64,000 nucleotides of DNA, taken from NCBI GenBank assembly GCA_039819165.1, contig JBCBSM010000001.1, forward strand, positions 372,001-436,000. The letters run 5' to 3'. The notes under the pieces were generated by a model that was not told where the DNA came from, did not search any database, and saw only the letters and a list, made by a program, of their open reading frames with translations. The stretch is from Planctomycetota bacterium (GTDB taxonomy: Bacteria > Planctomycetota > Phycisphaerae > Phycisphaerales > UBA1924). Shown piece after piece: positions 11,919 through 44,099 of the stretch; position 1 is the first letter of the stretch, and the number at the start of each line of letters is the position of its first letter. Made by a program: the position numbers and the translations under genes.

Positions 11919-12407
11919 ATGAGCATCGCGAGGGACAACCGTTGCCGAATCCTGGCCGCCTTGGGGCTGGCCTGCGCCTCCGCAGTCGCAGGCGGCTGCA
12001 TCGCGGCCGCGGCCGTACCCGTCATCGCCGCCGGTGCAGTCGCGGGCGAGAAGGGCTACGCGTTCTGGGATAGCGGCACGCTCAAGTACGTCGACGAAGC
12101 CAGCTTCGAGGAGATGAGCAGCGCCGTCGACGCCACCAACGAACGCTTGGCCCTCGTCACCGAGGACCGCATCGACGTCCCTCGCAAGAAGGGCGAGCAA
12201 GGGGCGGCCATCAAGCGCCGGGTCTGGACGCTCAGCTCGGACAACGGCAGGGTCCTGGAGGTCACCATCGCCCCCATCACCGAACGCATGGTGAGCGTGT
12301 CGGTCGAGTCCGGCCTGCTCGGCAGCCGCCCGGCGGCCCGCATGTACGCCGATCGCCTCAAGGCCGAACTCGAAGAGCGGCGGATGCCCGTGGACTCACG
12401 CTCCTAG
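11919..12407 (+). CDS. DUF3568-like lipoprotein
   Basis: A 162-residue protein with a signal sequence and a lipobox (SAVAGGC, Cys27). The body has the pattern of small planctomycete and proteobacterial proteins called DUF3568: GYAFWDSGTLKYVDEASFEEMSSAV, a middle strand region and RVLEVTIAPITERMVSVSVE. Its function is unknown; it is probably anchored to a membrane. GAGGGAG precedes the ATG. Its TAG stop shares the tetramer CTAG (12404-12407) with the stop of the convergent beta-propeller gene, so the two transcripts must overlap or end within each other. Confidence 0.75.
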   Translation: MSIARDNRCRILAALGLACASAVAGGCIAAAAVPVIAAGAVAGEKGYAFWDSGTLKYVDEASFEEMSSAVDATNERLALVTEDRIDVPRKKGEQGAAIKRRVWTLSSDNGRVLEVTIAPITERMVSVSVESGLLGSRPAARMYADRLKAELEERRMPVDSRS

Positions 12408-13738
12408 CCGCACCCCACGCCGAAGGCGTTCTGGAACGCGAGGAAGTCGAACAGCGTGAGCTCGCCGTCGCCGTCGAAATCGGCGGCGGGGTCGCCCAGC
12501 GCGAACAGGTTCTGGAATGCAAGGAAGTCGAAGACGGTCAGCTCTCCGTCGCCATCGAGGTCGGGCGGGCAGTCGATGGTCGCGGGCTCCCACACGACGA
12601 AGTTGTCCGGCTGGCTGCCCTGCGTGGGCACGATGTCGCCGACCTGTACGAGCGCTCCGTCGTTTTCGACGCGGAACGCGTAGATGCCGCTGAGCCCGTC
12701 GAACACCGTCGAGTTATCGGTGACGTAGAGGAACTCGCCGGCCGGCAGCGTTAGTGTGCCCACGGTGCCCAGTGTGCCCTGGCTGCCGACATCGAAGCTC
12801 GCGCCGGTCGCGCTGAGTGCACCGGTGACGGCGTCGGTGGCGAAGCCCTGCACCGTGGCATCCCGGCCGTGACCCGCGAAGACGTAGCGGCTGTCGCCCG
12901 TAACCGTGACCCACGCGGGCGAGTCGCCCGGGCTCGCGAAGGGCGAACCGCCGATGAAGCCGAGGCCACCCCCGGACGCCACCGAGAACCCGAGCACGTC
13001 GCTGCCCGTGCCGCTGATGCCGCCGCCGGCGTACAGCCAGTCGCCGTTGGGCGCCAGCGCCATGTCGAGGGCGAAATTGGGGCTGGTGAAGACGCGATCG
13101 ACGAGCAGCAGTTCGCCGTCATCGTCGACTTCGTAGCTGGCGACGTTCGCGGCGCCGCCGCCGAAGTCCGAGTCCTGCACGAACAGCAGCCGGCGCCGCG
13201 GATCGCTCTCCAGGTTGGTGATGAAGGTGCCGGTCTCGGTCGCGTCGGTCTGCACCAGCGAGCCCTGCCCGGGCTCGGCACCCGGGGTATACCGGTACAC
13301 GCGGGCGGTCGAGTCGCCCAGGGCGCTCTCGGCGACGGCCACCAGGTCATCGGCGACCCACGCGATGCCGAGCGGCGCGTTCGGAACGAGGAATTCGTCG
13401 AGCTGCTGCAGCGTGCCGTCTCGTCGAACCTCGATGATCGTCAGCTGCTCGGGGTCGAGCGCCGTCGCGTGGCCCGTCGCCAGGAATCGACCGCCGGGCG
13501 AGAGGGCGATGCCCTCGACGTTGGTGCCGCGCTCGGCGGGGTCGCCGGCGGGGCGCTCGTCGATCACCAGGTAGTCCACCTCGACCAGCCCGCCGTCGGG
13601 CCCGGGCTGGAAGCTCGTTACCGCGCCGAGCAGGTTGCCGTTGTTCGCGACGAGCACGGTCGGGTCGGCGGCCTGGCCCAGTGCAAGCGGGGCGGGCACG
13701 AAGGCCACGATGAGCGACGCACGGAAGCATCCACGCAT
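12404..13738 (-). CDS. Secreted lactonase-like beta-propeller with C-terminal dockerin-like repeats
   Basis: A 444-residue exported protein. Its signal peptide (MRGCFRASLIVAFVPAPLALG) precedes repeated strands typical of 7-bladed beta-propellers of the lactonase/YncE type (GRFLATGHATALD, PNGDWLYAGGG, GDSRYVFAGHG). The last 55 residues hold two copies of a calcium-loop repeat, DLDGDGELTVFDFLAFQN and DFDGDGELTLFDFLAFQN, ending AFGVGCG. Such paired repeats resemble dockerin type I modules and are common at the C-terminus of Phycisphaerae extracellular proteins, where they may serve sorting or cell-surface attachment; that role is inference. The start is ATG 13738 because AGGAGA lies about nine bases upstream and a clean signal peptide follows. 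Confidence 0.85.
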   Translation of the reverse strand: MRGCFRASLIVAFVPAPLALGQAADPTVLVANNGNLLGAVTSFQPGPDGGLVEVDYLVIDERPAGDPAERGTNVEGIALSPGGRFLATGHATALDPEQLTIIEVRRDGTLQQLDEFLVPNAPLGIAWVADDLVAVAESALGDSTARVYRYTPGAEPGQGSLVQTDATETGTFITNLESDPRRRLLFVQDSDFGGGAANVASYEVDDDGELLLVDRVFTSPNFALDMALAPNGDWLYAGGGISGTGSDVLGFSVASGGGLGFIGGSPFASPGDSPAWVTVTGDSRYVFAGHGRDATVQGFATDAVTGALSATGASFDVGSQGTLGTVGTLTLPAGEFLYVTDNSTVFDGLSGIYAFRVENDGALVQVGDIVPTQGSQPDNFVVWEPATIDCPPDLDGDGELTVFDFLAFQNLFALGDPAADFDGDGELTLFDFLAFQNAFGVGCG

Positions 13739-31513: not shown

Positions 31514-32077
31514 ATGGCTCGACGGCTTGGGTTGCTCGTGCTCGCGATGGTCCTGCTGGGCGGCTGCCGCGCTGCGCCCGAGGCCGAGAGCTCCCGCTCG
31601 AGCGGGCCGCCGGCGGGGATGTCGATCCGCGCCGAGGTCCACGTCTTCGATGCGGCCACCGCGGATCGCTATGCCCCGGGCGTGTACCTGCTGGAGCCCG
31701 ATGGCACCCTCCGCGTGGGCCCCGCTCCCGACCGTCCGAGAGGCATCGTGGCCCCGCCTAGGGCGCCCTATCCGCCGGTGCTGCGGACGATTGGCTCCGC
31801 CGACGCCGAGCGGCTCTGGCGTCTGGTGCGGTCGTCGAGCCTCGACGATCCAGACGACCCCGAGCGCATCTCGCACGACGCGGGCTGGGCGCCGCTCGAC
31901 GGCCGCAGCGCCGTGCTGGTCGATATCAGCGACGATCAGGGCCGCCGCCGCTACGCCACCGCGCTGCTGGGCGCGACGCCGGCGGCGACCGACGCCCGGG
32001 CGCTGGTCGAGCGTCTCCAGGCGCTCGCGTGGCGCACGCCCCGGCCGTCCTCGCCGCGGCGGGTGGGCACGCCCTGA
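31514..32077 (+). CDS. Predicted lipoprotein of unknown function
   Basis: A 187-residue protein with a signal and lipobox ([12 protein letters not shown], Cys18). It continues with a Ser-rich linker and a compact domain with alternating hydrophobics ([43 protein letters not shown]). I do not recognise a family. The stop overlaps the start of the Hsp70 gene (TGATG), suggesting shared transcription. It is divergent from pheT, and the 64 bases between them must hold both promoters. Confidence 0.65.
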
Positions 32078-34047
32078 TGGCCGAGAACGCCGAGAACGAG
32101 CGCGACGAACCCATCATCGGCATCGACCTTGGAACCACCAACTCGCTTGCGGCGTTCGCCGACGTGCGCGGTCCGCGCACGCTCGGTAGCCGGGCGACCG
32201 GCGGGGACTCTGATGGGCCGGCGGGCGACATCATCCCCAGCGTCGTCCGCTACGAGCCCGCGGCCGATGGGTCGCTGTCGGCGGTTGTCGGCGAGACGGC
32301 CCGCGACGCCGCGATGGACCATCCCCTCCACACCATCACGAGCGTCAAGCGGCTCATGGGTCGATCGCACGAGGAGGCGGCCGACGCGGGCTTCCGGCCC
32401 TACGCGATCGTGGCCGGCGAGCGCGCGATGGCCGCGGTCGCCATCCCGATGCCCGATGGCACGACGCGGATCCGCACGCCCCAGGAGGTCTCGGCCGACA
32501 TCCTGCGGGCGGTCCGCGCCCGCGCGGAGCACGCGCTGGGCCGGCCGGTGCGTCGGGCCGTGGTCACCGTGCCGGCCTATTTCGACGACCCCCAGCGGCA
32601 GGCGACCCGCGACGCCGGACGCCTCGCGGGGCTCGAGGTCGTCCGCATCGTCAGCGAGCCCACGGCCGCGGCGCTCGCCTACGGCCTCGGCGCCGGCCAG
32701 CGGGCTAAACGGCAGCCCTCGACGGTGGCGATCTACGACCTGGGCGGGGGCACCTTCGACGTCTCCATCCTCCGCATCACGCCGGGCGCCGCTCCCGACG
32801 CGCCGGCCATCTTCCAGGTGCTGGCCGTCGACGGCGATACCCGCCTCGGAGGCGACGACGCGGACCACTTGCTCGTCGACCTCTTCGTCCGCGAGATGGA
32901 CGGGCGGCTGGGGCTGGGCCTGCCCGAGGCCGGCGACCGGCTGGGCGCGCTGCCGCCCGATGTCCGCCGGGCACTGGTCGGCTTCGCTCAGGGCGTCAAG
33001 CACCGCCTGAGCGAGCAGGCGTCGGCATCCATCTCGATCGACGTCGGCGGGCGGGGGGCATACGAGCGCGAAGTCACGCGCGAGGAGTTCGAGGCCTTGA
33101 TCCAGCCCTGGATCGACCGATCGATCCGCGCGTGCGAGCGGGCCCGGCACGCTGCAAAGAAGAAGCCCGGCGGCGACGCCATCGACGCGGTGGTGCTCGT
33201 GGGCGGGTCGACTCGGATCCCCGCGGTGCGGCGCGCCGTCGCGGAGGGCTTCGGCCTGGAGCCCTACACCGCGCTCGATCCCGATCGCGTCGTAGCGCTC
33301 GGCGCCGCGGTGCAGGCGTCGATCCTGCAGGGCACCTCCCGCGGGTCGCTGCTGCTCGACGCCATCCCGCTGGGCCTGGGCATCGAGACGGTGGGGGGCG
33401 CGGTGGCGAAGCTCATCGTGGCCAACAGCACCGTGCCGGCCCGCGCCACCGAGACCTTCTCGACCAGCGTCGATAACCAGACCGCCATCGTGCTGCGCGT
33501 GCGGCAGGGCGAGCGGGAGATGGCCGAGGACTGCCGGCTGCTCGGCGAGTTCCACCTCCGAGGCATCCCGCCGATGCCCGCGGGCGTGCCGCAGCTCCAG
33601 GTCGAATTCCTGGTGGATGCCAACGGTGTGCTGAGCGTGTCGGCCGTCGAGCAGCGTTCGGGCCAGCAGGCCTCGCTCCAGATCGTGCCCAACCACGGGC
33701 TGACCAGCGAGGAAGTCGATCGCATCGAGGCCGAGGCGCTCGAGCACGCCCGCGACGACATGGCCCGCCACCGCGTCGTCGATCTGGTGTCGCACTCGAA
33801 GCTGGACCTCAAGTGGATCGACGAGGCCATGGCCCGCGCGGGCGACGCGATCGATGCCGCCGTGGCCCAGAAGATCGCCTCGGCGGCCGACGGGGTCCGC
33901 GAACTCATCCGCCGCGCCGAGGCCGACTGGCGGAGCGTGGAGCCCGAGTCCTTCGCGCGGGCCAAGCAGGCGATGGACGAGGCCAGCGTGCCGCTGCACG
34001 AGGCGTCGATCGCCCGGTCGCTCCGCGGCACGCGCGGCGACGGGTAG
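32077..34047 (+). CDS. Hsp70 family chaperone, HscA-like
   Basis: A 656-residue ATP-dependent chaperone. The ATPase domain has [17 protein letters not shown] (about 13-29), [45 protein letters not shown] and [11 protein letters not shown]. The substrate domain is shorter than in DnaK, and the C-terminus ([26 protein letters not shown]) resembles HscA more than DnaK, with no DnaK-style Gly/Pro tail. An acidic insert of about 15 residues sits after the first ATPase strand. No hscB, iscU, grpE or dnaJ lies nearby, so its client is unknown. It overlaps the preceding lipoprotein gene by one base. Confidence 0.85.
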
Positions 34048-34279: not shown

Positions 34280-35491
34280 ATGTCCAGGGCCGCACGCGGA
34301 ACCAGCCCGTACCTCTTCCTGGCGAGCAGCGCCAAGGGCGGCCGCAAGGTCGGCGTGCGCAGCGCCAGCAGCGAGCGCTCGCTGGCGTCGGGGCTCAGCC
34401 GCGAGCGACTCGTGCTCGTGCGGGCGTTCAAGCTGCCGGCCTGGATGTCGGGCGGCGGCCGGATGGGCCTCAAGGACCAGGCACGATTCAACAGTGTGCT
34501 GGCGCAGCTCGTCTCGCGGGGCGTGCCGCTGGTCGAGGCGCTGGACGTGACGGCGTCCTCGATCGACCGCCGGCACGCCTCCAAGGTCCGCCGCGCCCGG
34601 GCGATGGTCGCGGGCGGCTCGATGTTCGCCGAGGCCTGCGGCCGCGTGGGCATCGTCGATCCGGTGACCGCGGCTGTCTACCGCGCCGCGGAGCGCACGG
34701 GCGACCTCGGCGGCGCGTGCGACCAGCTGGCCCGCACGGCGGAGCGGCAGCTCAAGGTCCGCAGCAAGGCCGTCACGCTGCTGTTCTACCCGCTGATCGT
34801 GCTGGCCGTCAGCCTGCTGGTGGGCTGGGCGATGCTGACCTTCATCGTGCCGATGATCGGCTCCAACCTCGAGGGCCTGGGCGGCGAGCTGCCGCTGGTC
34901 ACCGTGGTGCTCATGACCGTCGGCGACGCCATCCGCGGCAACCTGCCGCTCTTCTTCCTGGGTCTGCTCGTGCTCGTCGTACTGGCCGCGGTGTTCCGCG
35001 CACCGCTATGGCGGGGCCTCTGGAGCGTCGTCCGCCGGCTGCCGGCGATGCGGCAGCTGGTGCTGGCGCAGGAATCCACGCAGTTCTTCTCGGTGATGGC
35101 GGCCATGACCCGCTCGGGCGTGACGCTGGCCGATGCGCTGGTCGTCGGCTACCGCACGGTGAGCCACACGAAGCTCCGCCGCCAGCTCCAGACGCTCCAG
35201 CGGCGGCTGGTCGAGGGCGGCCAGCTCGCGCGGCTGCTCGAGGACGTCGAGGCCGTCCCGCTAAGCGTCCGCAAGCTGCTGATCGCCGCCGAACGCTCGG
35301 GCGACATCGAGAAGGCCTTCGACAGCCTCGCCGACGATATGGCCGAGGAGGTCGAGCGCCGCAGCGAGCGGGCGCTGGCGGTGCTCGAGCCGGCGCTGAT
35401 CATCTTCATGTTCCTGATGATCGGCACGATGGTGATCGCGATCATGCTGCCGTTGTTTACGGCGACGGCCAACATGGATCTAGGGGGGTGA
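34280..35491 (+). CDS. gspF: Type II secretion/type IV pilus inner-membrane platform protein F
   Basis: The F protein anchors the assembly ATPase and drives pseudopilus growth in the inner membrane. The 403-residue product has the duplicated T2SSF domain: copy one with RFNSVLAQLVSRGVPLVEALDV (about 68-89) and copy two with QFFSVMAAMTRSGVTLADALVV (about 268-289). Hydrophobic helices follow each copy (TLLFYPLIVLAVSLLVGW, LFFLGLLVLVVLAAVF, ALIIFMFLMIGTMVIAIMLP). The first 60 residues are basic and Ser-rich. A GGGAGG lies 11 bases before ATG 34280. The next gene is a classic G pseudopilin, supporting the call. No gspE lies in the window. Confidence 0.9.
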   Translation: MSRAARGTSPYLFLASSAKGGRKVGVRSASSERSLASGLSRERLVLVRAFKLPAWMSGGGRMGLKDQARFNSVLAQLVSRGVPLVEALDVTASSIDRRHASKVRRARAMVAGGSMFAEACGRVGIVDPVTAAVYRAAERTGDLGGACDQLARTAERQLKVRSKAVTLLFYPLIVLAVSLLVGWAMLTFIVPMIGSNLEGLGGELPLVTVVLMTVGDAIRGNLPLFFLGLLVLVVLAAVFRAPLWRGLWSVVRRLPAMRQLVLAQESTQFFSVMAAMTRSGVTLADALVVGYRTVSHTKLRRQLQTLQRRLVEGGQLARLLEDVEAVPLSVRKLLIAAERSGDIEKAFDSLADDMAEEVERRSERALAVLEPALIIFMFLMIGTMVIAIMLPLFTATANMDLGG

Positions 35492-35550
35492 GCGCCGGGC
35501 GGCAATCCCGCTCTCGCGCATCGGGTGAAGAAAGACACGAGGTGGACGAC

Positions 35551-35958
35551 ATGCACACGAAACAACGAACGCATCGCGCCGCACGCGGCTTCTCGCTGCT
35601 GGAGATCACGCTGGTGGTGCTGATCATCGGCGTGCTGATGGGCATCGCGGGCGTGGCCTTCCTGCCGCGTTTGCTGCAGGCCCAGTCAACGGCGACCGAG
35701 TCGACCATGACCACGGTCAAGCAGTCGCTGGAACAGTACAAGGCCCAGAATAACGCCTATCCGACGCAGCTGGCCCAGCTGGTGCCAAACTATCTATCCG
35801 ACCCGCCGACCGATGGCTGGGACCGCCAGTTCTGGTACGCCACGCCGGGCCAGGCCGGCCGGCCGTTCGACCTGATTAGCGCAGGCGAGGACGGAAACTA
35901 CAGCACGGCCGACGACATCAGCGTCTGGACCCTCGGCCAGGACGGGCAGGCGAACTGA
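35551..35958 (+). CDS. gspG: Type II secretion major pseudopilin G
   Basis: The G pseudopilin is the main subunit of the pseudopilus. The 135-residue product has a prepilin leader cut by the prepilin peptidase after Gly (ARG|FSLLEITLVVLIIGVL), with Glu at position 5 of the mature protein. The C-terminal half carries the family calcium-loop pattern: FDLISAGEDGNYSTADDISVW, with conserved acids, Gly and Trp. GAGG lies eight bases before ATG 35551. It sits 60 bases after gspF. The length and the loop favour GspG over type IV pilins. Confidence 0.9.
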   Translation: MHTKQRTHRAARGFSLLEITLVVLIIGVLMGIAGVAFLPRLLQAQSTATESTMTTVKQSLEQYKAQNNAYPTQLAQLVPNYLSDPPTDGWDRQFWYATPGQAGRPFDLISAGEDGNYSTADDISVWTLGQDGQAN

Positions 35959-35963
35959 AAGGC

Positions 35964-36560
35964 ATGCCCACCTGCCGCACCCTGCGCACGAGCCGCCGTG
36001 GCATCACCTTCCTCGAGGTGGTGCTGGCGTCGGCGTTGCTCGGCATCGTGTCGATGGGCATCTTCAGCGCGATGAACTACGTCGTGCTGCAGCAGCGGCG
36101 GGCCGAGCAAGCACTCGGCGCCGCCGAGGTCGCCAACCGCGTCGTGGTCATGTTCCTGGACAACCCCGACGACATGCCCTCGAACGGCCAGCCGATCGCC
36201 TACGGACGGCACCTGTACCACTGGGACTACGCCGCCGCCCCGATCACGCTCTACGACCCGCAGGCCACCGACGACATCGCGCCGCTGCGGCTCGATCGGC
36301 TGCGCGAGCTCACGGTGACGGTGTGGCTGCACGAGGACACCGGCGGGGCCCGGCGGCCCGGCCCCGACGCGCCGACCATCACCGTCCGCCGCATGCTCGA
36401 TCCCGCGCCGACCCGTAACCCCGACACCCTGGCCCGTGCGATGGACGCCGGCCGCGTCGGCGGCATCTGGTTTGGCGACGGCGGCGGCACGCGATCCGGC
36501 GGTTCGCGGGGCGGGACGGCGGACGGCGGAGGGGGCGGCGGCCTCGGGGGCGGCAACTGA
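35964..36560 (+). CDS. Minor pseudopilin, GspI-like
   Basis: A 198-residue type IV pilin-like protein. The leader ends RRG|ITFLEVVLASALLGIV, with Gly-1 and Glu+5 typical of prepilin peptidase substrates. The body has no Cys and ends in a long Gly-rich tail (GGTADGGGGGGLGGGN). The position after gspG and before a J-like and K-like gene suggests the I role in the pseudopilus tip, but the sequence alone cannot prove I over H. It starts five bases after gspG and its stop overlaps the next start (TGATG). Confidence 0.7.
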   Translation: MPTCRTLRTSRRGITFLEVVLASALLGIVSMGIFSAMNYVVLQQRRAEQALGAAEVANRVVVMFLDNPDDMPSNGQPIAYGRHLYHWDYAAAPITLYDPQATDDIAPLRLDRLRELTVTVWLHEDTGGARRPGPDAPTITVRRMLDPAPTRNPDTLARAMDAGRVGGIWFGDGGGTRSGGSRGGTADGGGGGGLGGGN

Positions 36561-37648
36561 TGCGGCGGGCCGGCTTCACGCTGATCGAGGTCTCGCTGGC
36601 CGTGATGGTCGGCGCGGTCATCCTCGCCGCCGCCGTGGGCATGTTCACGACGATGGAGCGGGCGGACGCCATCGCGACGGTCCGCGCCGAGGAGACCTTC
36701 CACCTCGAGCGGATGCAGCGGGTGGCGACGCAGGCGATGGGCTCGCTGCTGATCGCCACCCGTGAGGAGGCCGACGAGGCCGCCGAGGCCGAGGCCGAAG
36801 CCGGCCAGGCCGCGTCCCAGACCGACGGCCAGCCCGGCGGTCAGGCCGATGTGCTCGACGACGGGCTGGACGAGGACGGCCAGCCGCTCGACGACGACGA
36901 GGAGTCCATGATCCGCCCCCGCGTGCTGCTCGAGCGCGACCCGGTGCTCGCCGGCCGCCCGATGACCCGCCGGGTGCGCATCGGCCATCAGGGGCTGGGG
37001 CCCGCCGAGTCGGCGATGGCCCAGCGGCTGGAGCTGACGCTGAGCGCCCCGCCCGTGCAGCAATCGATCGAGGACATGGAGCGCCGGTGGGATCTCGCCT
37101 TGCTGGGCGCACGGCCGCTCGATGCGGGCGATAACATCGACGATCTGGGCGCCATCCGCGGCGCCTTCGTGCTCCGCGACGAGCGGCGGGTGAACGAGCT
37201 GGGGCTGCCGGTGTTCAGCATGTGGTGGCGGCCGGTCGCCGCGGGCCTCGAGGCGGATCCGCGGCTGGCCTACGCGGTCGATCCCGCGGCCGTCGACGGC
37301 GCGGTGCTGCTCGTCGAGAACCTGGTTTGGGCCAGGTGGCGCTTCTACAAGCAGGGCGGGTGGCGGGAGGAATTCGACGCCTACGGCGAGATCGACCTGG
37401 CCGCGTATGCCGAGCTAGAGCTGACCACGACGCAGAACCAGACGGTCGCGTGGATCTTCGAGCTGGCCTGGACGCTCGGGCTCGATCCCGACGCCGAGGA
37501 CGAAGGGGAAGGGGACGGCGCGGACGGCGAGGGTGAGCCCGACGAGATCGACCCCACCGACGAACCGGGCGATGGCGGCGGTAGTCGGCCGCCGGCGGGT
37601 CGCGGTCCGCGCGATGGCCACGGCGGCGGCGTGGCGGGGGGCAACTGA
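36560..37648 (+). CDS. Minor pseudopilin, GspJ-like
   Basis: A 362-residue pilin-like protein, larger than typical GspJ (about 200). The leader RRAG|FTLIEVSLAVMVGAVIL has Gly-1 and Glu+5. An acidic, Ala/Asp/Glu-rich insert (EEADEAAEAEAEAGQAAS and on to about residue 115) interrupts the body. The last 50 residues are acidic and then Gly-rich, ending GHGGGVAGGN. The middle WRFYKQGGWREEFDAYG and VAWIFELAW segments look like the J body. It overlaps both neighbours by TGATG, and the junction sequence is the same 14 bases seen at the I/J junction. Confidence 0.7.
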   Translation: MRRAGFTLIEVSLAVMVGAVILAAAVGMFTTMERADAIATVRAEETFHLERMQRVATQAMGSLLIATREEADEAAEAEAEAGQAASQTDGQPGGQADVLDDGLDEDGQPLDDDEESMIRPRVLLERDPVLAGRPMTRRVRIGHQGLGPAESAMAQRLELTLSAPPVQQSIEDMERRWDLALLGARPLDAGDNIDDLGAIRGAFVLRDERRVNELGLPVFSMWWRPVAAGLEADPRLAYAVDPAAVDGAVLLVENLVWARWRFYKQGGWREEFDAYGEIDLAAYAELELTTTQNQTVAWIFELAWTLGLDPDAEDEGEGDGADGEGEPDEIDPTDEPGDGGGSRPPAGRGPRDGHGGGVAGGN

Positions 37649-38493
37649 TGCGGGGTTGCGTACCGATCCGCCGCGGGTTCGCGCTGCCGCTGGTCGTGCT
37701 GCTGGCGATGGTGGCCACGATCGCCATGGCGGTGATGATGCAGCGGCAAGGCCAGCAGAACCTGACGCTCGTGCGGCAGGTGCAGTGGACCAAGGACCGC
37801 CACCTCGAGCGCGGGCTGCGGGAGGTCATCGGCGCGTGGCTGCCCAGCGCCGGCCGCCGGCTGGGCGAGATCTCGAGCCAGGGCGGGCATGCGCTGGACA
37901 TCCAGTTCGACGACGGGCGGTCGGTCCGCGTCGAGGTCTTCGACGCCCAGGGCTCGGCACTCGCGAACTTCGACGGCATCCGTGAGTCGCAGCTCGACGA
38001 GGCCGTCACGGTGCTCGAGGCGGTCGAGGAAGCCGCCGGCGGCGGAGACACCTTCGAACGCTGGACCCGCGACATCGGGCCGCTGCAGATCAGTGCCCGT
38101 ACCGCGCCCGAGCCGCTGATCGCGGCGGCGGCGTCCGCGGCACTCAGCCCGGGCCGAGCCGCCGATCTGGCCCGCGATCTCGTGCTCGCTCGCGAGGAAC
38201 CCGACGCGGCCGGCGGCAGCCACTGGATGCGGCGGCTGATCTCCGATTACTCGGAGACCGGCCAGGAGCGCACCCTGCTCACGGCGGTGTTCACCGCCGA
38301 GGCGGATCTGTGGAGCCTGCGCATCACGGTGTACGACCAGGACGGCGATCCCCGCGACCGCTACGAGGCGCTCGTCGAGGTCGACGGGCGGGAGATCCGC
38401 CGCCGGACCGATAGCGGACAGTTCGCACCCCTCGGCCCGTTCCAGCGGTGGCGCCGCGTGCCGAGCATCGAGGACGGACGCGTCCCACGCTAA
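37648..38493 (+). CDS. Minor pseudopilin, GspK-like
   Basis: A 281-residue protein with an N-terminal RRG|FALPLVVLLAMVATIAMAV. Like GspK, it has the Gly-1 cleavage context but no Glu at +5, the feature that marks K as the tip pseudopilin. The rest is soluble and hydrophilic, with two weakly repeated segments. Typical GspK is about 300-330 residues. It follows the J-like gene with a TGATG overlap. A hairpin begins five bases after the TAA stop, the only real gap in the operon. Confidence 0.65.
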   Translation: MRGCVPIRRGFALPLVVLLAMVATIAMAVMMQRQGQQNLTLVRQVQWTKDRHLERGLREVIGAWLPSAGRRLGEISSQGGHALDIQFDDGRSVRVEVFDAQGSALANFDGIRESQLDEAVTVLEAVEEAAGGGDTFERWTRDIGPLQISARTAPEPLIAAAASAALSPGRAADLARDLVLAREEPDAAGGSHWMRRLISDYSETGQERTLLTAVFTAEADLWSLRITVYDQDGDPRDRYEALVEVDGREIRRRTDSGQFAPLGPFQRWRRVPSIEDGRVPR

Positions 38494-38498
38494 GCTTC

Positions 38499-38521
38499 GG
38501 GGTGCCGCGTTGACGCACCCC
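38499..38521 (+). terminator. Intra-operon hairpin after the GspK-like gene
   Basis: GGGGTGC (38499-38505) pairs with GCACCCC (38515-38521) around a nine-base loop, just after the stop at 38493 and before the start at 38543. It has no T tract, so it may lower read-through or protect the upstream mRNA rather than end the transcript. Confidence 0.4.
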
Positions 38522-38542
38522 CCATCGCCGGGAGAGACCGCC

Positions 38543-39361
38543 ATGGCAGACCGCTCGGACAGGGCCGGACACCTCAGGCAGCGGCGGATCATGCAGGCCT
38601 CGGCCGCGGGCGTGGCGGGCGTGTGCGCCCTCATCGCCGTGGGGGCCGTGTTCGCCGACAAGTCGGTCACCCCCTACGAGGTGCAGCCGCCCGTGGTGCC
38701 CGAGGTGGAGGCGGCCTCCGCCGGCGCGGTCGACGTCTGGCGGGTCTCGCCCGACGCCATGGAGGTCAGCCTCGCCCGCGTGCACGAGATGGAGCCCGAG
38801 CCCACCCAGAGCGAGCAGGGCGGCGACGAGGGCGACCAGGCTCCGCCCCCACCCCAGGACGTCAAGCTCGTCGCGACCATCGGCGCCGGCGAGAACCTGT
38901 CGGCCGTCATCCGCGAGGGCGCCACGCAGCTGGTGCTCCGCAAGGGCGAGCGGGCGGGGGGGTGGCAGGCCCTCGACGTCCAGTCCAGGTCGGCCCGCAT
39001 CCGCAAGGGCCGCGTTACCAAGGACCTCACGCTGGATCCGCCCATGCTGCTCGTGAGCGACATCGGCTTCGGCGGGGGCGGCGACGTGGGCACCCAGGGC
39101 GTTGCCCAGCCCGGCCAGCGCGCCCGCACGACCGTCAGCGGCGTGGGCGAGGACCGCACGGTCTCGCCCACGACCACACGCTTCTCGCGCCGGCAGCCGG
39201 GCACCGCCTCGAGCGGCGGCCGGCAGGGCCAGGGGGGCCAGGGCCAGGGCGGCCGCGACCGACGACAGCAGGAGCAAGAGCAGGGACAGCCGCGGGCGCG
39301 CACCGGCGGTGGCAACGGCGGCGGTAATGGCGGCAATGTGGGCGGCGGGGGGAACAATTGA
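38543..39361 (+). CDS. GspC-like inner-membrane/periplasmic secretion protein (tentative)
   Basis: A 272-residue protein with one N-terminal transmembrane helix (ASAAGVAGVCALIAVGAVF) and a periplasmic part. A central segment, VKLVATIGAGENLSAVIREG and GERAGGWQALDVQSRSARI, has the rhythm of the homology region of GspC, which contacts the secretin. The last 60 residues are Gln/Gly/Arg-rich and end GGGNGGNVGGGGNN. No PDZ domain is visible, unlike many GspC proteins. ATG 38543 is chosen because GGGAGAG sits nine bases upstream. Its TGA overlaps the TTG start of the next gene. Confidence 0.5.
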   Translation: MADRSDRAGHLRQRRIMQASAAGVAGVCALIAVGAVFADKSVTPYEVQPPVVPEVEAASAGAVDVWRVSPDAMEVSLARVHEMEPEPTQSEQGGDEGDQAPPPPQDVKLVATIGAGENLSAVIREGATQLVLRKGERAGGWQALDVQSRSARIRKGRVTKDLTLDPPMLLVSDIGFGGGGDVGTQGVAQPGQRARTTVSGVGEDRTVSPTTTRFSRRQPGTASSGGRQGQGGQGQGGRDRRQQEQEQGQPRARTGGGNGGGNGGNVGGGGNN

Positions 39362-40950
39362 CCGACCGCGTCTGCTTCATCGAGCGCGACGCGCGGGGTG
39401 ACCGCGTCCAGGCGGTGCGGCTCGTGAGCCCGCACGCCGAGGCGCGATGGGATAATCCCGCCGCCGGCGTGGCCGACGCCTCGGATCCACTCGGCGACGC
39501 CGATGCCGCCGCCGAGTGGATCGCCGAGCGACTCGCCGCCGACGGAGTCCGCCTGTCGGCGATCGCGATGGATGCCGCGGGCGCCCAGTGCGGCTGGATC
39601 TACGCGGGATCGGCCGAGCCCGCCGCGGTGAGGGCCGCCTACCTCCGCAGCAGCGAATCCGACTCGGACGACCTCGAATTCGACGAGGGCTTCGACGACG
39701 AGCAGGCAGCGCCCGAGGGCCTGGGCGGCATCGCCGAGCCCATGGACGCCTCGATCGAGCCGCTGGCGCCGGCCGCCCGGGACGAGCACGGCGCCCGCGT
39801 CGGCGTCGTGGTCGCGCCCGATGCCATCGTCCGTCTTGTGCTGGATGGGCTGGACCGCCGACGCGTCGACTTCGATGCCGTGCTCTCGCTCTGGCACGCC
39901 CTGGCGCTCGCCTGCGAGCCCGCGGGCGGTGCACGGCCCGATCGAGTCGTCGCCGAGAGCCCCGTCGTGTGCGGCGGCGTGCTGGTGACGCCCGACGGCC
40001 GGTTGCTGTGGTGCTGGTCGCGAGAGCGGACGCTGCTGGCGGCGGGCTCGGTCCGCCTCGTGCCGCACGACGACGGCCCGATCGTGACGCCGGCCGACGT
40101 CGCCCGCGTCGCCAACGACTGGGTCGCCTGGAGCGCGCAGCTGGGAGTCTCGCCCGGCCGCCTTGCGCTCTTCCTGTGCCCGATGGCGGGGCCCGACGCC
40201 GTCGGCGACGACGCGGCGCTCACCGCGCCCGGGCTGGCAAACGCGCTGGCCGATGCCTGGCCCGATGCCGTCGCCGACGTCGAGATCGACGACGATCCCA
40301 TCCTCCGCGTGCTGCGAGCGATCGATGCCGGCGACGGCGACCTCGCGGCCGGGCACGGCATGGCCTCGCTCGCGACGCGGCCCGGGCGCTCGACCCGCCG
40401 CGTGTACACCCTCGCGGGCGTGGCGCTCATGGCACTCGGGGTCGCGCTCGGGGCCCTGGGATTCCGCTGGCAGGCCAAGGTCGGCGCCATGGAGGCCGAC
40501 GGCCAGAGGCTCCGCGAGGCCTGGCTGGCCGACGCCGCCGAGATCGAGCAGATGCTCGAGGAACCCGAGGGCACCATCACGGCCAGCGTAGCGCCGCTGC
40601 TGCAGCTCAACACGCTGGTGAGCAACGCGACGCGGGCCCGCAGCGTCGATCGCGCGCCGCCCAAGCCCGTCCTCCAGGAACTCGAGACGCTGACCTTCAT
40701 GCTCGGCGAACTGGGTGACGAGGTCGAGCTCCAGGACCTGTTGATCGCCGACGTGGCGCTCACGGTCAAGCTGACGACCGAGGATCCGACCGTGGCCGGC
40801 CGCATCAATGTGCTCATGGAGGACCTCGGGCTCACCGGCGAGGACGCCAACGTGGATTGGACGCTCCGATCCGACCAGCGTGGGGACCGCTACGAGGTCT
40901 CGCTCGCCGGCCTTTGGGTCCAGCGTCGATCCACCGGGGGACAGCCATGA
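39358..40950 (+). CDS. GspL/PilM-PilN-like inner-membrane secretion protein (tentative)
   Basis: A 530-residue protein that starts at TTG 39358, overlapping the upstream TGA. The first 340 residues are cytoplasmic, Ala/Asp-rich and globular. One transmembrane helix follows (VYTLAGVALMALGVALGALGF), and a short periplasmic part begins WQAKVGAMEADGQRLREAW. This topology (large cytoplasmic domain, one helix, small periplasmic end) is that of GspL, and PilN-like sequence follows the helix. An acidic stretch (SDSDDLEFDEGFDDEQ) is unusual. No alignment could be run, so the name is a topology-based guess. Confidence 0.5.
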   Translation: MTDRVCFIERDARGDRVQAVRLVSPHAEARWDNPAAGVADASDPLGDADAAAEWIAERLAADGVRLSAIAMDAAGAQCGWIYAGSAEPAAVRAAYLRSSESDSDDLEFDEGFDDEQAAPEGLGGIAEPMDASIEPLAPAARDEHGARVGVVVAPDAIVRLVLDGLDRRRVDFDAVLSLWHALALACEPAGGARPDRVVAESPVVCGGVLVTPDGRLLWCWSRERTLLAAGSVRLVPHDDGPIVTPADVARVANDWVAWSAQLGVSPGRLALFLCPMAGPDAVGDDAALTAPGLANALADAWPDAVADVEIDDDPILRVLRAIDAGDGDLAAGHGMASLATRPGRSTRRVYTLAGVALMALGVALGALGFRWQAKVGAMEADGQRLREAWLADAAEIEQMLEEPEGTITASVAPLLQLNTLVSNATRARSVDRAPPKPVLQELETLTFMLGELGDEVELQDLLIADVALTVKLTTEDPTVAGRINVLMEDLGLTGEDANVDWTLRSDQRGDRYEVSLAGLWVQRRSTGGQP

Positions 40951-41534
40951 GCGGCCTCGCACCCCATCCCGAGGCCGACGGTCCGCCGCCCGTCGATCGC
41001 ACCGAGTTGAGCGCCCGCGCGGCCGCCAACGAACAGCGGAGCAAGCCCAAGGGCCTGATCGTTGCCGGATTGCTCGTGCTGCTCGTGGGCGTCGTCTACA
41101 TGGCCGTCGGGTGGTCGTCGCTCTCGTCCGCGGCGACCAATCGGCGGAACGAGGCGGCCACCACGCGGAACGTCGCCTTCCAGAAGGCCGCTCTGGAGCG
41201 TGCGCTCCGCGACGGCGTCGCCGGCGGCGGCGACTACGCGCCCTTCGAACAATTCGCCCAGGAGGCCGACCTGGTGGCGCAGAGCGTCGGGCTGACGCCC
41301 GCGCCCCAGCTCAGGAGCCAGATCTCGACCGACGACCAGCGGACCGACCTGGTGCTGCAGACCTATCGCTACGAGAACATCCGTTCGCGGGACCTCGGCG
41401 CGCTGCTGGCGTGGGTCTCGGAGGTTCCCGAGCGCGTCCCGGGCATCGTCGAGATATCCCGCCTCGAGTTGACGCCCCGTCCGCGGGACTGGGAGCTGGA
41501 CGTGACATTCGTGAAGCCGGAGTTCCCCCGATGA
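40947..41534 (+). CDS. GspM/PilO-like inner-membrane secretion protein (tentative)
   Basis: A 195-residue protein with a cytoplasmic stretch of about 45 residues, one transmembrane helix (GLIVAGLLVLLVGVVYMAV) and a periplasmic domain ending RLELTPRPRDWELDVTFVKPE. This is the layout of GspM or PilO, which pairs with the L/N protein. ATG 40947 overlaps the TGA of the L-like gene (ATGA), so the pair is coupled, as GspL and GspM usually are. It overlaps the next gene in the same way. Confidence 0.55.
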   Translation: MSGLAPHPEADGPPPVDRTELSARAAANEQRSKPKGLIVAGLLVLLVGVVYMAVGWSSLSSAATNRRNEAATTRNVAFQKAALERALRDGVAGGGDYAPFEQFAQEADLVAQSVGLTPAPQLRSQISTDDQRTDLVLQTYRYENIRSRDLGALLAWVSEVPERVPGIVEISRLELTPRPRDWELDVTFVKPEFPR

Positions 41535-42160
41535 GCGTTCGCCCCGTGTCCCTGTGTCTCGCCGTGCTCGCCGGGGCGTTGCTGCTCGCGGGCTGCGCGT
41601 CCGATGGACGCCGCTCGGCCGCCGAATTCGATCTGGGCATCCCGGATACCACCGCCCAGCAGCGACAGGCGATCGAGCTGGTCAATCGCGGCTACGAGCT
41701 GTACCACGACGAGGACCGCGACTACGAGAAACGCAGCCGGGAGGCCGCCGAGCTGTTCCGCAGGGCGATTTCGCTCGATCCGGGCTTCGCGTCGGCCCAC
41801 TTCAATCTGGGCGTCTTCTACCTCGACAACCAGGCCTACCCGTCGGCCATCCAGTCGTTCCGCACGGCGCAGATCCTGACGCCGGCCGACTCCCGGGCCG
41901 CCTACCACCTGGGCGTGGCCTACGCGAGCATGCGGCGGCACGACCGCGCCATCGAGGCCTACCAGGATGCGCTGCTGGTCAATCCGAACGATCTGCTGGC
42001 GATGCGGGGGCTGATGGCCTCGTGCCGGCGGAGCCTCTACGCCGACCACGCCACCCTCGAGGCCATCCGCCGCGGGCTGGAGCTCGAGACCAGCCGCGAG
42101 TGGCGGGGGCACATGGAGCGCGAGGTGACCCGCCAGGAGCAGTTGCTGGAGCTGGGCTGA
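41531..42160 (+). CDS. TPR lipoprotein, possible pilotin (PilF/PilW-like)
   Basis: A 209-residue protein with a lipobox (LAGALLLAGC, Cys20) and tetratricopeptide repeats (AAELFRRAISLDPGFASAHF, YPSAIQSFRTAQILTPADSR, HDRAIEAYQDALLVNPNDLL). Secretin pilotins of the PilF/PilW class are TPR lipoproteins, and its place at the end of a secretion operon fits that role. The secretin gene is not in this window, so this is inference. The start overlaps the M-like gene by four bases. Confidence 0.7.
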   Translation: MSVRPVSLCLAVLAGALLLAGCASDGRRSAAEFDLGIPDTTAQQRQAIELVNRGYELYHDEDRDYEKRSREAAELFRRAISLDPGFASAHFNLGVFYLDNQAYPSAIQSFRTAQILTPADSRAAYHLGVAYASMRRHDRAIEAYQDALLVNPNDLLAMRGLMASCRRSLYADHATLEAIRRGLELETSREWRGHMEREVTRQEQLLELG

Positions 42161-42163
42161 GCG

Positions 42164-42607
42164 ATGGATCCCGCCGCGGCCGCCATACCGAACGCCCGTG
42201 GAGGCGTGCTCCGCGTCGTGCTGGGGGTCATCGCGGCGCTCGCCATTGCTGGCGTCGCCACCGCGATCTTCTACACCAAGCTCACGCCGACAGCCCCGGG
42301 CCCGGCGCGGGTCGTGCTCGTCAACGCGACCGGGGCGTCACTGATCGATCCCGGCATGACCCTGCGCGTGCCCGATGGCGGCACCGTGGCCGTCGCGCCG
42401 CCGCTGCTCGACGACGGCGACACCTGGCGGGTCTACGACGGACCGGGCCCGATCGAGATCGAGATGGTCCAGTTCGTGGACGCCGCGTCGGGCGCACCGG
42501 TGCAGCTTGACTCGCCGCTCGACGGGCCGGCCACCGGCGTGCTGACCCTGACCGTGGGCGCGGGCGGTGCGCTGTCGGTCGAACGCGGACCGCTGCCGCC
42601 CGAGTAG
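42164..42607 (+). CDS. Small membrane-anchored protein of unknown function
   Basis: A 147-residue protein with one transmembrane helix near the N-terminus (GVLRVVLGVIAALAIAGVATAIF) and a periplasmic domain of short beta strands (ARVVLVNATGASLIDPGM, TLRVPDGGTVAVAPPLL, GVLTLTVGAGGALSVERG). It starts three bases after the TPR lipoprotein and ends 13 bases before the convergent PIN-PhoH gene, so it is probably the last gene of the secretion operon. I do not recognise a family. Confidence 0.6.
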   Translation: MDPAAAAIPNARGGVLRVVLGVIAALAIAGVATAIFYTKLTPTAPGPARVVLVNATGASLIDPGMTLRVPDGGTVAVAPPLLDDGDTWRVYDGPGPIEIEMVQFVDAASGAPVQLDSPLDGPATGVLTLTVGAGGALSVERGPLPPE

Positions 42608-42620
42608 CCCGGGTGGAACG

Positions 42621-44099
42621 CTACAGCCGCTCGGCCGCGAGGCTCGCCAGCGTCGAGCGCTCGCTGCGCTGCAGCGTGACGTGGCCGACGACGCCGAGGC
42701 CCTTCATCTTCTCGACGGCGTACGAGAGGCCGTTGGACGAGCTATCGAGGTACGGGTTGTCGATCTGGCCGATGTCGCCGGTGAGCACGAGCTTGGTGCC
42801 CTCGCCCACGCGGCTGGCGATGGTCTTGACCTCGTGCGGCGTGAGGTTCTGGGCCTCGTCGACGATCATGAACTGGTGGGGGATCGAGCGGCCTCGGATG
42901 TAGGTCAGCGGCTCGAGCACCAGCTTGCCGTCGGCGATCATCTTGTCGATCCGTTGCTCGTTGGTCTGGCTGTCGGCCTGCTGGCCGTGCGCCCCGCGGG
43001 TGCTCAGCAGGTACTCGAGGTTGTCGAAGATCGGCTGCATCCAGGCGAAGAGCTTCTCGTCCTTGTCGCCCGGCAGGTAGCCGATGTCGCGGCCCATGGG
43101 CATGATCGGGCGGGCGACCAGCAGCTTGTCGTAGCGGCCCTCCTGGAAGATCTTGGCCATGCCCGCCGCGAGCGCGAGCAGCGTCTTGCCGGTGCCGGCG
43201 CTGCCTAGCAGCGTGATCATCTGGATCTCGTCGTCCATCAGCAGGTCCAGGGCCATCGTCTGCTGCACGTTGCGGGCCATCAGCCCGAAGATGGGCTTGC
43301 GGGGCGGCGAGATGGGGATGCAGTGCTGCGTGTCGGCCAGCCGCCGAGCGAGGCCCGTGTGGTTCTCGTCCTGCTCGTTGCGGAGCAGCACGAACTGGTT
43401 GGGCCGGATCTCGGGCGCCGTTCGCATCTGCGTGGGGTCGCCCGTGTCGGCCTGCTCCGACATCGCGGCCAGTACGGGCTCGAGGTCGAGCATCCGCTCG
43501 TCGTAGAGCGCATCGATGAGGTCGCCCGCGACGTCCACCGACTCGAAGCCCGTGTACAGACGGTCGGCGTCCACCTTCTGGTTCTGGAAGTCCTCGGTCT
43601 GGATGCCCAGCGCATCGCTCTTGATGCGGGCGTTGAGGTCCTTGGAGACGAACACGACACGGTCGCCGCGGTCGTGGATATCCCAGGCGACGGCGATGAT
43701 GCGGTTGTCCTTGGTGTCCTCGCGTAGCGCGTAGGGCCGCGAGCCGTCGGTGATGGCGATGCGGATGCAGCCCGTGACGCCGTTGCCGGCCGTGGAGGCG
43801 GCCGCGCCCGCCTGCGGCGTTGCATCGCCCCAGCGGACGCCCTCGGTCAGGGTGCCCAGCGCCCGCAGGCGATCGAGCCGGCGGATGACCTCGCGGGCGT
43901 TGCGGCCGATGTCGTCTTCTTGCCGCTTGAGCTTGTCGAGCTCCTCGATCACCGCGAAGGGGATGACGACGTCGTTCTCCTGGAACACGAAGAGTGCGTT
44001 GGGGTTGTGCAGCAGCACGTTGGTGTCCAGCACGAACTGCTTGACGCCGACGGCGGTGTCGTCGGGCGTCATCGCGTGCTCCAGGCGTGTGGGTGGCAT
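42621..44099 (-). CDS. PIN-PhoH fusion protein (PhoH2/YlaK-like RNA helicase-nuclease)
   Basis: A 492-residue protein with an N-terminal PIN ribonuclease domain (VLDTNVLLHNPNALFVF, later DTKDNRIIAVAWDI and FVSKDLNARIKSDALG) and a C-terminal PhoH ATPase (Walker A GSAGTGKT, Walker B FMIVDEAQN, and LVLTGDIGQIDNPY). PIN-PhoH proteins unwind and cut RNA and are often toxin-like, yet are usually housekeeping when without an antitoxin; no antitoxin gene is evident here. ATG 44099 and ATG 44072 both have a GGAG six bases upstream, so the start is uncertain by nine residues. Confidence 0.9.
   Translation of the reverse strand: MPPTRLEHAMTPDDTAVGVKQFVLDTNVLLHNPNALFVFQENDVVIPFAVIEELDKLKRQEDDIGRNAREVIRRLDRLRALGTLTEGVRWGDATPQAGAAASTAGNGVTGCIRIAITDGSRPYALREDTKDNRIIAVAWDIHDRGDRVVFVSKDLNARIKSDALGIQTEDFQNQKVDADRLYTGFESVDVAGDLIDALYDERMLDLEPVLAAMSEQADTGDPTQMRTAPEIRPNQFVLLRNEQDENHTGLARRLADTQHCIPISPPRKPIFGLMARNVQQTMALDLLMDDEIQMITLLGSAGTGKTLLALAAGMAKIFQEGRYDKLLVARPIMPMGRDIGYLPGDKDEKLFAWMQPIFDNLEYLLSTRGAHGQQADSQTNEQRIDKMIADGKLVLEPLTYIRGRSIPHQFMIVDEAQNLTPHEVKTIASRVGEGTKLVLTGDIGQIDNPYLDSSSNGLSYAVEKMKGLGVVGHVTLQRSERSTLASLAAERL

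What the first reader, a model, noticed from the sequence alone, without database searches (positions are those of the whole stretch)
34280..42607. Pseudopilus secretion operon with unusual C, L and M-like genes and no ATPase or secretin
Genes F, G, I-like, J-like and K-like are followed by three genes whose topology, not clear homology, suggests C, L and M. A TPR lipoprotein like a pilotin and a small membrane protein end the run. gspE and gspD are not here. This may be a divergent type II secretion system of Phycisphaerae that exports, for example, dockerin-bearing proteins such as the one at 12404-13738.
Basis: partly seen in the sequence, partly recalled or inferred. Interest (0 to 1): 0.7.

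Follow-up and report, generated by a model that had tools for sequence, protein, structure and literature searches.

The report
Split type II secretion system, Phycisphaerales
These ten genes are most of a real but divergent protein-export machine (a type II secretion system); its missing outer-membrane pore and motor genes sit 0.7 million bases away in the same genome, and in several relatives the whole machine is still one operon, followed in some of them by the gene for a probably exported protein with a dockerin tail.

Summary
In detail: 34280-42607 encodes GspF, G, I, J, K, C, L, M, a TPR lipoprotein and a small membrane protein, without secretin or ATPase. It is a genuine, divergent type II secretion system (T2SS) split in two. 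C, L and M, named by topology only, are homologs: orthologs match Pfam T2SSC, GspL_C and T2SSM, and AlphaFold models match solved GspC and GspL domains. The partners gspD-gspE lie 724 kb away (C1:1135455-1139651). In seven of 45 family genomes with the L protein, D-E-F-G-I-J-K-C-L-M-TPR is one collinear operon; unsplit loci form one clade, so one split is the simplest history. L occurs in 45 of 46 genomes of this Phycisphaerales family and, by single-sequence search, in 0 of 105 others of the order. In 13 loci of relatives the gene after TPR encodes a family-restricted, dockerin-tailed, probably exported protein, which indirectly supports dockerin-protein export; it is absent from the window's genus, and the protein at 12404-13738 shows no specific link.

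The parts
34280..35491 (+). gspF, inner-membrane platform protein
   Evidence: T2SSF 2.6e-39, GspF TIGR02120 2e-55; start conserved in 18 orthologs
35551..35958 (+). gspG, major pseudopilin
   Evidence: T2SSG 1.4e-12, TIGR01710 7.9e-20, N_methyl
35964..36560 (+). gspI-like minor pseudopilin
   Evidence: N_methyl 0.0017, XpsI 0.006; fixed place between G and J in relatives
36560..37648 (+). gspJ-like minor pseudopilin
   Evidence: N_methyl 1.2e-4, gspJ 5.8e-4
37648..38493 (+). gspK-like minor pseudopilin
   Evidence: T2SS_GspK 0.0049 over residues 9-102; N-terminal (G/A)-F-(A/V)-(L/M)-P motif common in the family
38543..39361 (+). gspC: one TM helix plus beta-rich HR domain
   Evidence: 6 of 41 orthologs match T2SSC, best 9.7e-6; model residues 107-163 at pLDDT about 96; GspC 3oss TMt 0.74, PulC HR 6hcg TMt 0.65
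39358..40950 (+). gspL: actin-like cytoplasmic domain, TM helix, periplasmic ferredoxin-like domain
   Evidence: model pLDDT 88; EpsL-cyto 1yf5 Z 13.6, XcpY periplasmic 5n7l Z 10.6, rmsd 1.8 over 77 residues; 3 of 43 orthologs match GspL_C, best 2.2e-6
40947..41534 (+). gspM
   Evidence: 11 of 29 orthologs match T2SSM, best 2e-5
41531..42160 (+). TPR lipoprotein, putative pilotin
   Evidence: TPR repeats, weak PilW/Tgl matches; lipobox-like Cys in 59 of 68 matches, 2 of the rest being unrelated TPR proteins; follows M throughout the family
42164..42607 (+). small single-TM protein, found only in the window's genus and its nearest relatives
   Evidence: no family match; found only in 5 close loci

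Best explanation
A complete, divergent type II secretion system encoded in two unlinked blocks. The window block supplies the pseudopilus (G, I, J, K), the inner-membrane platform (C, F, L, M) and a lipoprotein that probably escorts the secretin (TPR). The block at C1:1135455-1139651 supplies secretin GspD and motor ATPase GspE. Inferred working, from characterised T2SS: GspE docks on GspL, drives GspF to assemble GspG behind an I-J-K tip, and the growing pseudopilus pushes folded periplasmic proteins through the GspD ring, which GspC couples to the platform. The prepilin peptidase is presumably shared (one match in the genome, C2:266063). Shown here: homology and domain folds, joint inheritance, and a joint operon in relatives. 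Inferred: assembly, secretion and cargo. The likeliest cargo class is folded Sec-exported proteins, perhaps dockerin-tailed ones among them.
For: Order-wide search: L in 45 of 46 genomes of family f1 and 0 of 105 others; L016-type GspD at 240 bits or more in all 46, best value outside 212 bits; a profile search of L in a class sample found only three marginal hits outside f1, one of them at the place expected for gspL in another T2SS cluster (secretin and F of G004:C9). D-E-F-G-I-J-K-C-L-M-TPR collinear in 7 of 45 genomes. The gene upstream of D (L016:6352-7338 -) also flanks D in unsplit relatives, so D-E kept its ancestral neighbour. The 12 unsplit F rows are one clade, SH-aLRT 100. L016 E is far nearer the unsplit-operon E proteins (7e-215 or better) than any paralog of its own genome (2e-107). 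GspD and GspE models beat PilQ and PilB (5.5e-60 vs 4.7e-41; 5.7e-158 vs 1e-138). Folds of C and L.
Against: No expression or secretion data. No GspH gene in the window or in ortholog clusters. GspE lacks the C-x2-C motif. The window C, K and L proteins alone hardly match curated profiles. Two other T2SS clusters exist, so subunit sharing between systems cannot be excluded.
Confidence: 0.92

Rival explanations
1. A type IV pilus or another type IV filament machine rather than a T2SS.
For: Shared homology; Foldseek's best hit for the L cytoplasmic domain is PilM (2ych), and PilP is among the first hits for C.
Against: L is one GspL-type polypeptide, not PilM plus PilN; C has a TM helix and an HR domain and is not a lipoprotein; K is GspK-like; D, E and F score best against GspD, GspE and GspF; no retraction ATPase in the cluster. 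The genome's PilM-N-O-type clusters are elsewhere.
Confidence: 0.04
2. A relic or partial operon that borrows the secretin and ATPase of the genome's other T2SS clusters.
For: Two other D/E-containing clusters exist.
Against: A dedicated D-E pair is kept in all 46 family genomes and forms one operon with F...TPR in relatives; all frames are open and orthologs are found in 34 genera.
Confidence: 0.03
3. A T2SS mainly devoted to dockerin-tailed exoproteins: the dockerin tail, or the protein family linked to the operon, is its main cargo. (This adds a cargo claim to the best explanation and does not compete with it.)
For: In 13 loci the next gene after TPR, same strand, encodes a roughly 650-830 aa protein with a signal-like N-terminus and a C-terminal dockerin-like repeat; full-length family members were found only in family f1.
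Against: That family is absent from the window's genus; dockerin proteins also abound in genomes without this system; adjacency does not show transport.
Confidence: 0.2

Closest known systems
Type II secretion systems of Proteobacteria (Gsp/Pul/Eps/Xcp)
   Same: D, E, F, G, I, J, K, C, L and M present, with matching folds for C-HR and for both GspL domains
   Different: Very low sequence identity; no GspH; C, L and M follow K (order K-C-L-M); a TPR lipoprotein in the pilotin role is only inferred; D-E block separated
Legionella pneumophila Lsp T2SS (PMC6617341)
   Same: Scattered over five loci; lspF monocistronic, as F stands alone in some relatives here
   Different: Different lineage; here one block holds F, G, I-K, C, L, M, and an unsplit operon survives in relatives
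The second T2SS cluster of the same genome, C1:520-10668 (L015)
   Same: Order D-E-F-G-H-I-J-K-C-L-M-TPR, the same K-C-L-M-TPR tail (later genes named by place and topology)
   Different: Contiguous, has a GspH-like gene; secretin C-terminal part 34% identical
T2SS models of Abby 2016 and Denise 2019 (PMC4793230, PMC6668835)
   Same: Define T2SS by these components
   Different: Abby 2016 reports very few T2SS outside Proteobacteria and 96.5% in one locus, and says that scattered or very divergent ones were missed

Membership tests
Type II secretion system | GspD secretin with N-terminal N0/N1 domains | tested here: met
   Distant pair: Secretin 2e-36, Secretin_N 1.2e-20, N0 0.002 (below cut-off), GspD model 5.5e-60
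Type II secretion system | GspE ATPase with N-terminal MshEN-type domain | tested here: met
   T2SSE 1.2e-121, MshEN 9.7e-7, Walker A present
Type II secretion system | GspE zinc tetracysteine motif (present in most, not all) | tested here: not met
   No C-x2-C in the sequence; from general knowledge it is also missing in XpsE, so not treated as defining
Type II secretion system | GspF platform protein | tested here: met
Type II secretion system | Major pseudopilin GspG | tested here: met
Type II secretion system | Minor pseudopilins I, J, K | tested here: met
   Weak profile matches plus prepilin motif and fixed order in relatives
Type II secretion system | Minor pseudopilin GspH (an accessory component; not treated as defining) | tested here: not met
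   No gene between G and I in the window or in ortholog clusters
Type II secretion system | GspC with HR domain | tested here: met
Type II secretion system | GspL: actin-like domain, TM and ferredoxin-like domain in one chain | tested here: met
Type II secretion system | GspM | tested here: met
Type II secretion system | Prepilin peptidase in the genome | tested here: met
   One match, C2:266063
[quoted passage not shown]
   needs mutants and secretome
Type IVa pilus | Separate PilM and PilN, lipoprotein PilP | tested here: not met
   L is one chain; C is TM-anchored

The most novel reading that the evidence does not exclude
In this Phycisphaerales family the T2SS is a dedicated exporter of dockerin-tailed exoproteins, the founding substrate being the family encoded right after the TPR gene; the dockerin tail, or a receptor for it, takes part in recognition or surface retention.
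Probability: 0.15. Interest if true: 0.7.

Novelty: new variant of a known kind. Interest (0 to 1): 0.45.

Why it matters
It adds a whole family of Planctomycetota with a T2SS that standard detection would probably miss, because C, K, L and M lie below profile thresholds and the operon is split. It also names a concrete candidate substrate family, linked to the operon in relatives, that would make the export route of planctomycete dockerin-tailed proteins testable.

Tried and rejected
Search of curated libraries with window C, K and L alone: too divergent; solved by going through orthologs. Type IV pilus reading: rejected on L, C, D, E and F. Link between this system and GC-type dockerin proteins by co-occurrence: found in all 46 f1 genomes but also in 56 of 105 others, so not specific. 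Gene downstream of E in split genomes as a scar of excision: no gene shared with the region downstream of TPR in unsplit genomes. Linked exoprotein in the window genome by sensitive profile: no match; no solved structure resembles it convincingly by sequence. The careful tree of F did not finish; the quick tree (SH-aLRT only) was used, and its root is unsure because the outgroup branches are very long.

Full report
WHAT IS THERE. The window is G000:C1:372001-436000 of a 3.14 Mb genome; relatives of its GspF in a named collection are almost all Phycisphaerales MAGs. On the + strand, 34280-42607, ten genes run head to tail with gaps from -4 to 59 nt. GspF and GspG are clear by profile; I, J, K, C and M are only weakly matched and L not at all when the window proteins are scanned alone. 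There is no secretin or ATPase gene in the window.

ARE C, L AND M REAL? Yes. From the F alignment a scan of GTDB contigs fetched 80 loci, and HMMs built for each gene mapped the cluster in them. In 73 of the 74 loci where K and L bound the slot (a few are duplicate records), a single-TM protein lies between them. Scanning orthologs one by one, 6 of 41 C proteins match T2SSC (best 9.7e-6), 11 of 29 M proteins match T2SSM (best 2e-5) and 3 of 43 L proteins match the GspL periplasmic domain (best 2.2e-6). AlphaFold models built with those alignments settle it. C has a TM helix and a beta-rich domain at pLDDT about 96 whose nearest solved structures are PilP and GspC HR domains, with GspC 3oss at TMt 0.74 (E-values about 0.005, as only some 60 residues fold). 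L (mean pLDDT 88) has an actin-like domain matching EpsL (1yf5, Z 13.6), and also PilM and FtsA at similar Z, plus a C-terminal domain matching periplasmic XcpY (5n7l, Z 10.6, rmsd 1.8 over 77 residues). That pair of domains in one chain is the GspL arrangement; in type IV pili it is divided between PilM and PilN (general knowledge).

WHERE ARE D AND E? An isolated gspD-gspE pair lies at L016:7456-11652 (C1:1135455-1139651) between genes that are not T2SS genes. It has the T2SS domain make-up and scores best as GspD and GspE. Four results tie it to the window block. First, distribution: in 151 genomes of the order, the L protein is found in 45 of 46 genomes of family f1 and in 0 of 105 others; this type of GspD is found at 240 bits or more in all 46, and no genome outside exceeds 212 bits. 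The one f1 genome without L (G036) has F, D and E, so an assembly gap is a likely reason. A more sensitive profile search in the class gave three marginal hits outside f1 (4e-5 to 3e-4); that in G004:C9 lies 4-7 kb after a secretin and an F-type gene, as expected of a distant true GspL. Second, operon: in 7 of the 45 genomes D, E, F, G, I, J, K, C, L, M, TPR are collinear on one strand; in an eighth (G050) G...TPR is inverted beside D-E-F. In the rest the two blocks are over 30 kb apart (15, the window's own 724 kb), 19 kb apart (1) or on different contigs (21). Third, history: the 12 F rows from unsplit loci are one clade (SH-aLRT 100, quick tree), so one split is the simplest reading, though the root is uncertain and the direction of change (splitting rather than joining) is inferred from the contiguous order seen also in the genome's own cluster at C1:520-10668. 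Fourth, neighbours: the gene upstream of D in the window genome also lies upstream of D in unsplit and other split relatives, while phoH sits convergently just after TPR (after the small gene in the window's genus) in 23 split loci and was seen in none of the unsplit ones. In some lineages F too stands alone.

OTHER SYSTEMS IN THE GENOME. Two further clusters hold their own D and E: C1:520-10668, D-E-F-G-H-I-J-K-C-L-M-TPR, with the later genes named by position and topology only, and C1:1246-1258 kb, E-F-G-H-I-J-K-L-M-like...D. So the genome probably carries three T2SS. There is one prepilin-peptidase match, C2:266063, so it is presumably shared.

CARGO. That domain occurs in all 46 f1 genomes but also in 56 of the 105 others, so it does not point to this system. 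A better lead came from relatives: in 13 loci from distinct genomes the next gene after TPR, on the same strand and within about 400 nt, encodes a roughly 650-830 aa protein with a signal-like N-terminus and, wherever the gene is complete in the fetched stretch, a C-terminal dockerin-like repeat (L190 and L198 are cut by the end of the stretch). Seven of these loci are in the unsplit clade; the others (L178, L190, L198, L223, L224, L225) come from genomes with split or unresolved D-E. Full-length members were found only in family f1: outside it only the dockerin tail matched, and a profile search of the six genomes of the window's genus, G036 and 12 genomes of other families found none. So a substrate role is a testable inference for relatives, and this particular family is not the cargo in the window organism.

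HOW IT WORKS (inferred from characterised T2SS). GspE bound to GspL powers GspF to assemble GspG behind an I-J-K tip; the pseudopilus pushes folded periplasmic proteins through the GspD channel, whose N0 ring is coupled to the platform by GspC-HR. The TPR lipoprotein resembles PilW/Tgl-type pilotins only in being a TPR lipoprotein; its role is inferred from place and kind.

COMPARISON AND NOVELTY. Scattered T2SS genes are known from Legionella (five loci, PMC6617341). A large survey found few T2SS outside Proteobacteria and 96.5% in one locus, and says it missed scattered or very divergent ones (PMC4793230). Searches of the open literature found no description of this system, but most subscription journals are not held. 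I rate it a new variant of a known kind.

Noticed in passing
L089:14540-16663, L095:14341-16506, L223:5766-8084 and ten other loci: A family of dockerin-tailed, probably exported proteins of unknown fold is the next gene after the T2SS TPR gene; found only in this Phycisphaerales family and not in the window's genus.
   Followed up: partly
L151, L152: Records titled Cyanobacteria bacterium CYA and Leptolyngbya sp. PLA1 carry GspF of this system and fall inside the Phycisphaerales tree; they look mislabelled.
   Followed up: no
L015:1-11000 (C1:1-11000): A second complete T2SS cluster with the same K-C-L-M-TPR tail, at lower G+C (about 0.60-0.68) and with codon use unlike the rest.
   Followed up: partly
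L010/L019 (C1:1470174-1470671): A secretin domain sits inside an open frame reported as 5023 codons long.
   Followed up: no
window 32029-34047 and 42621-44072: An HscA/DnaK-like Hsp70 gene just upstream of gspF and a phoH gene just after the operon recur beside it in the genus and, for phoH, widely in split genomes.
   Followed up: partly
L122, L125, L126, L152, L157, L159, L160, L170, L186: In several relatives gspF stands alone, away from both D-E and G...TPR.
   Followed up: partly
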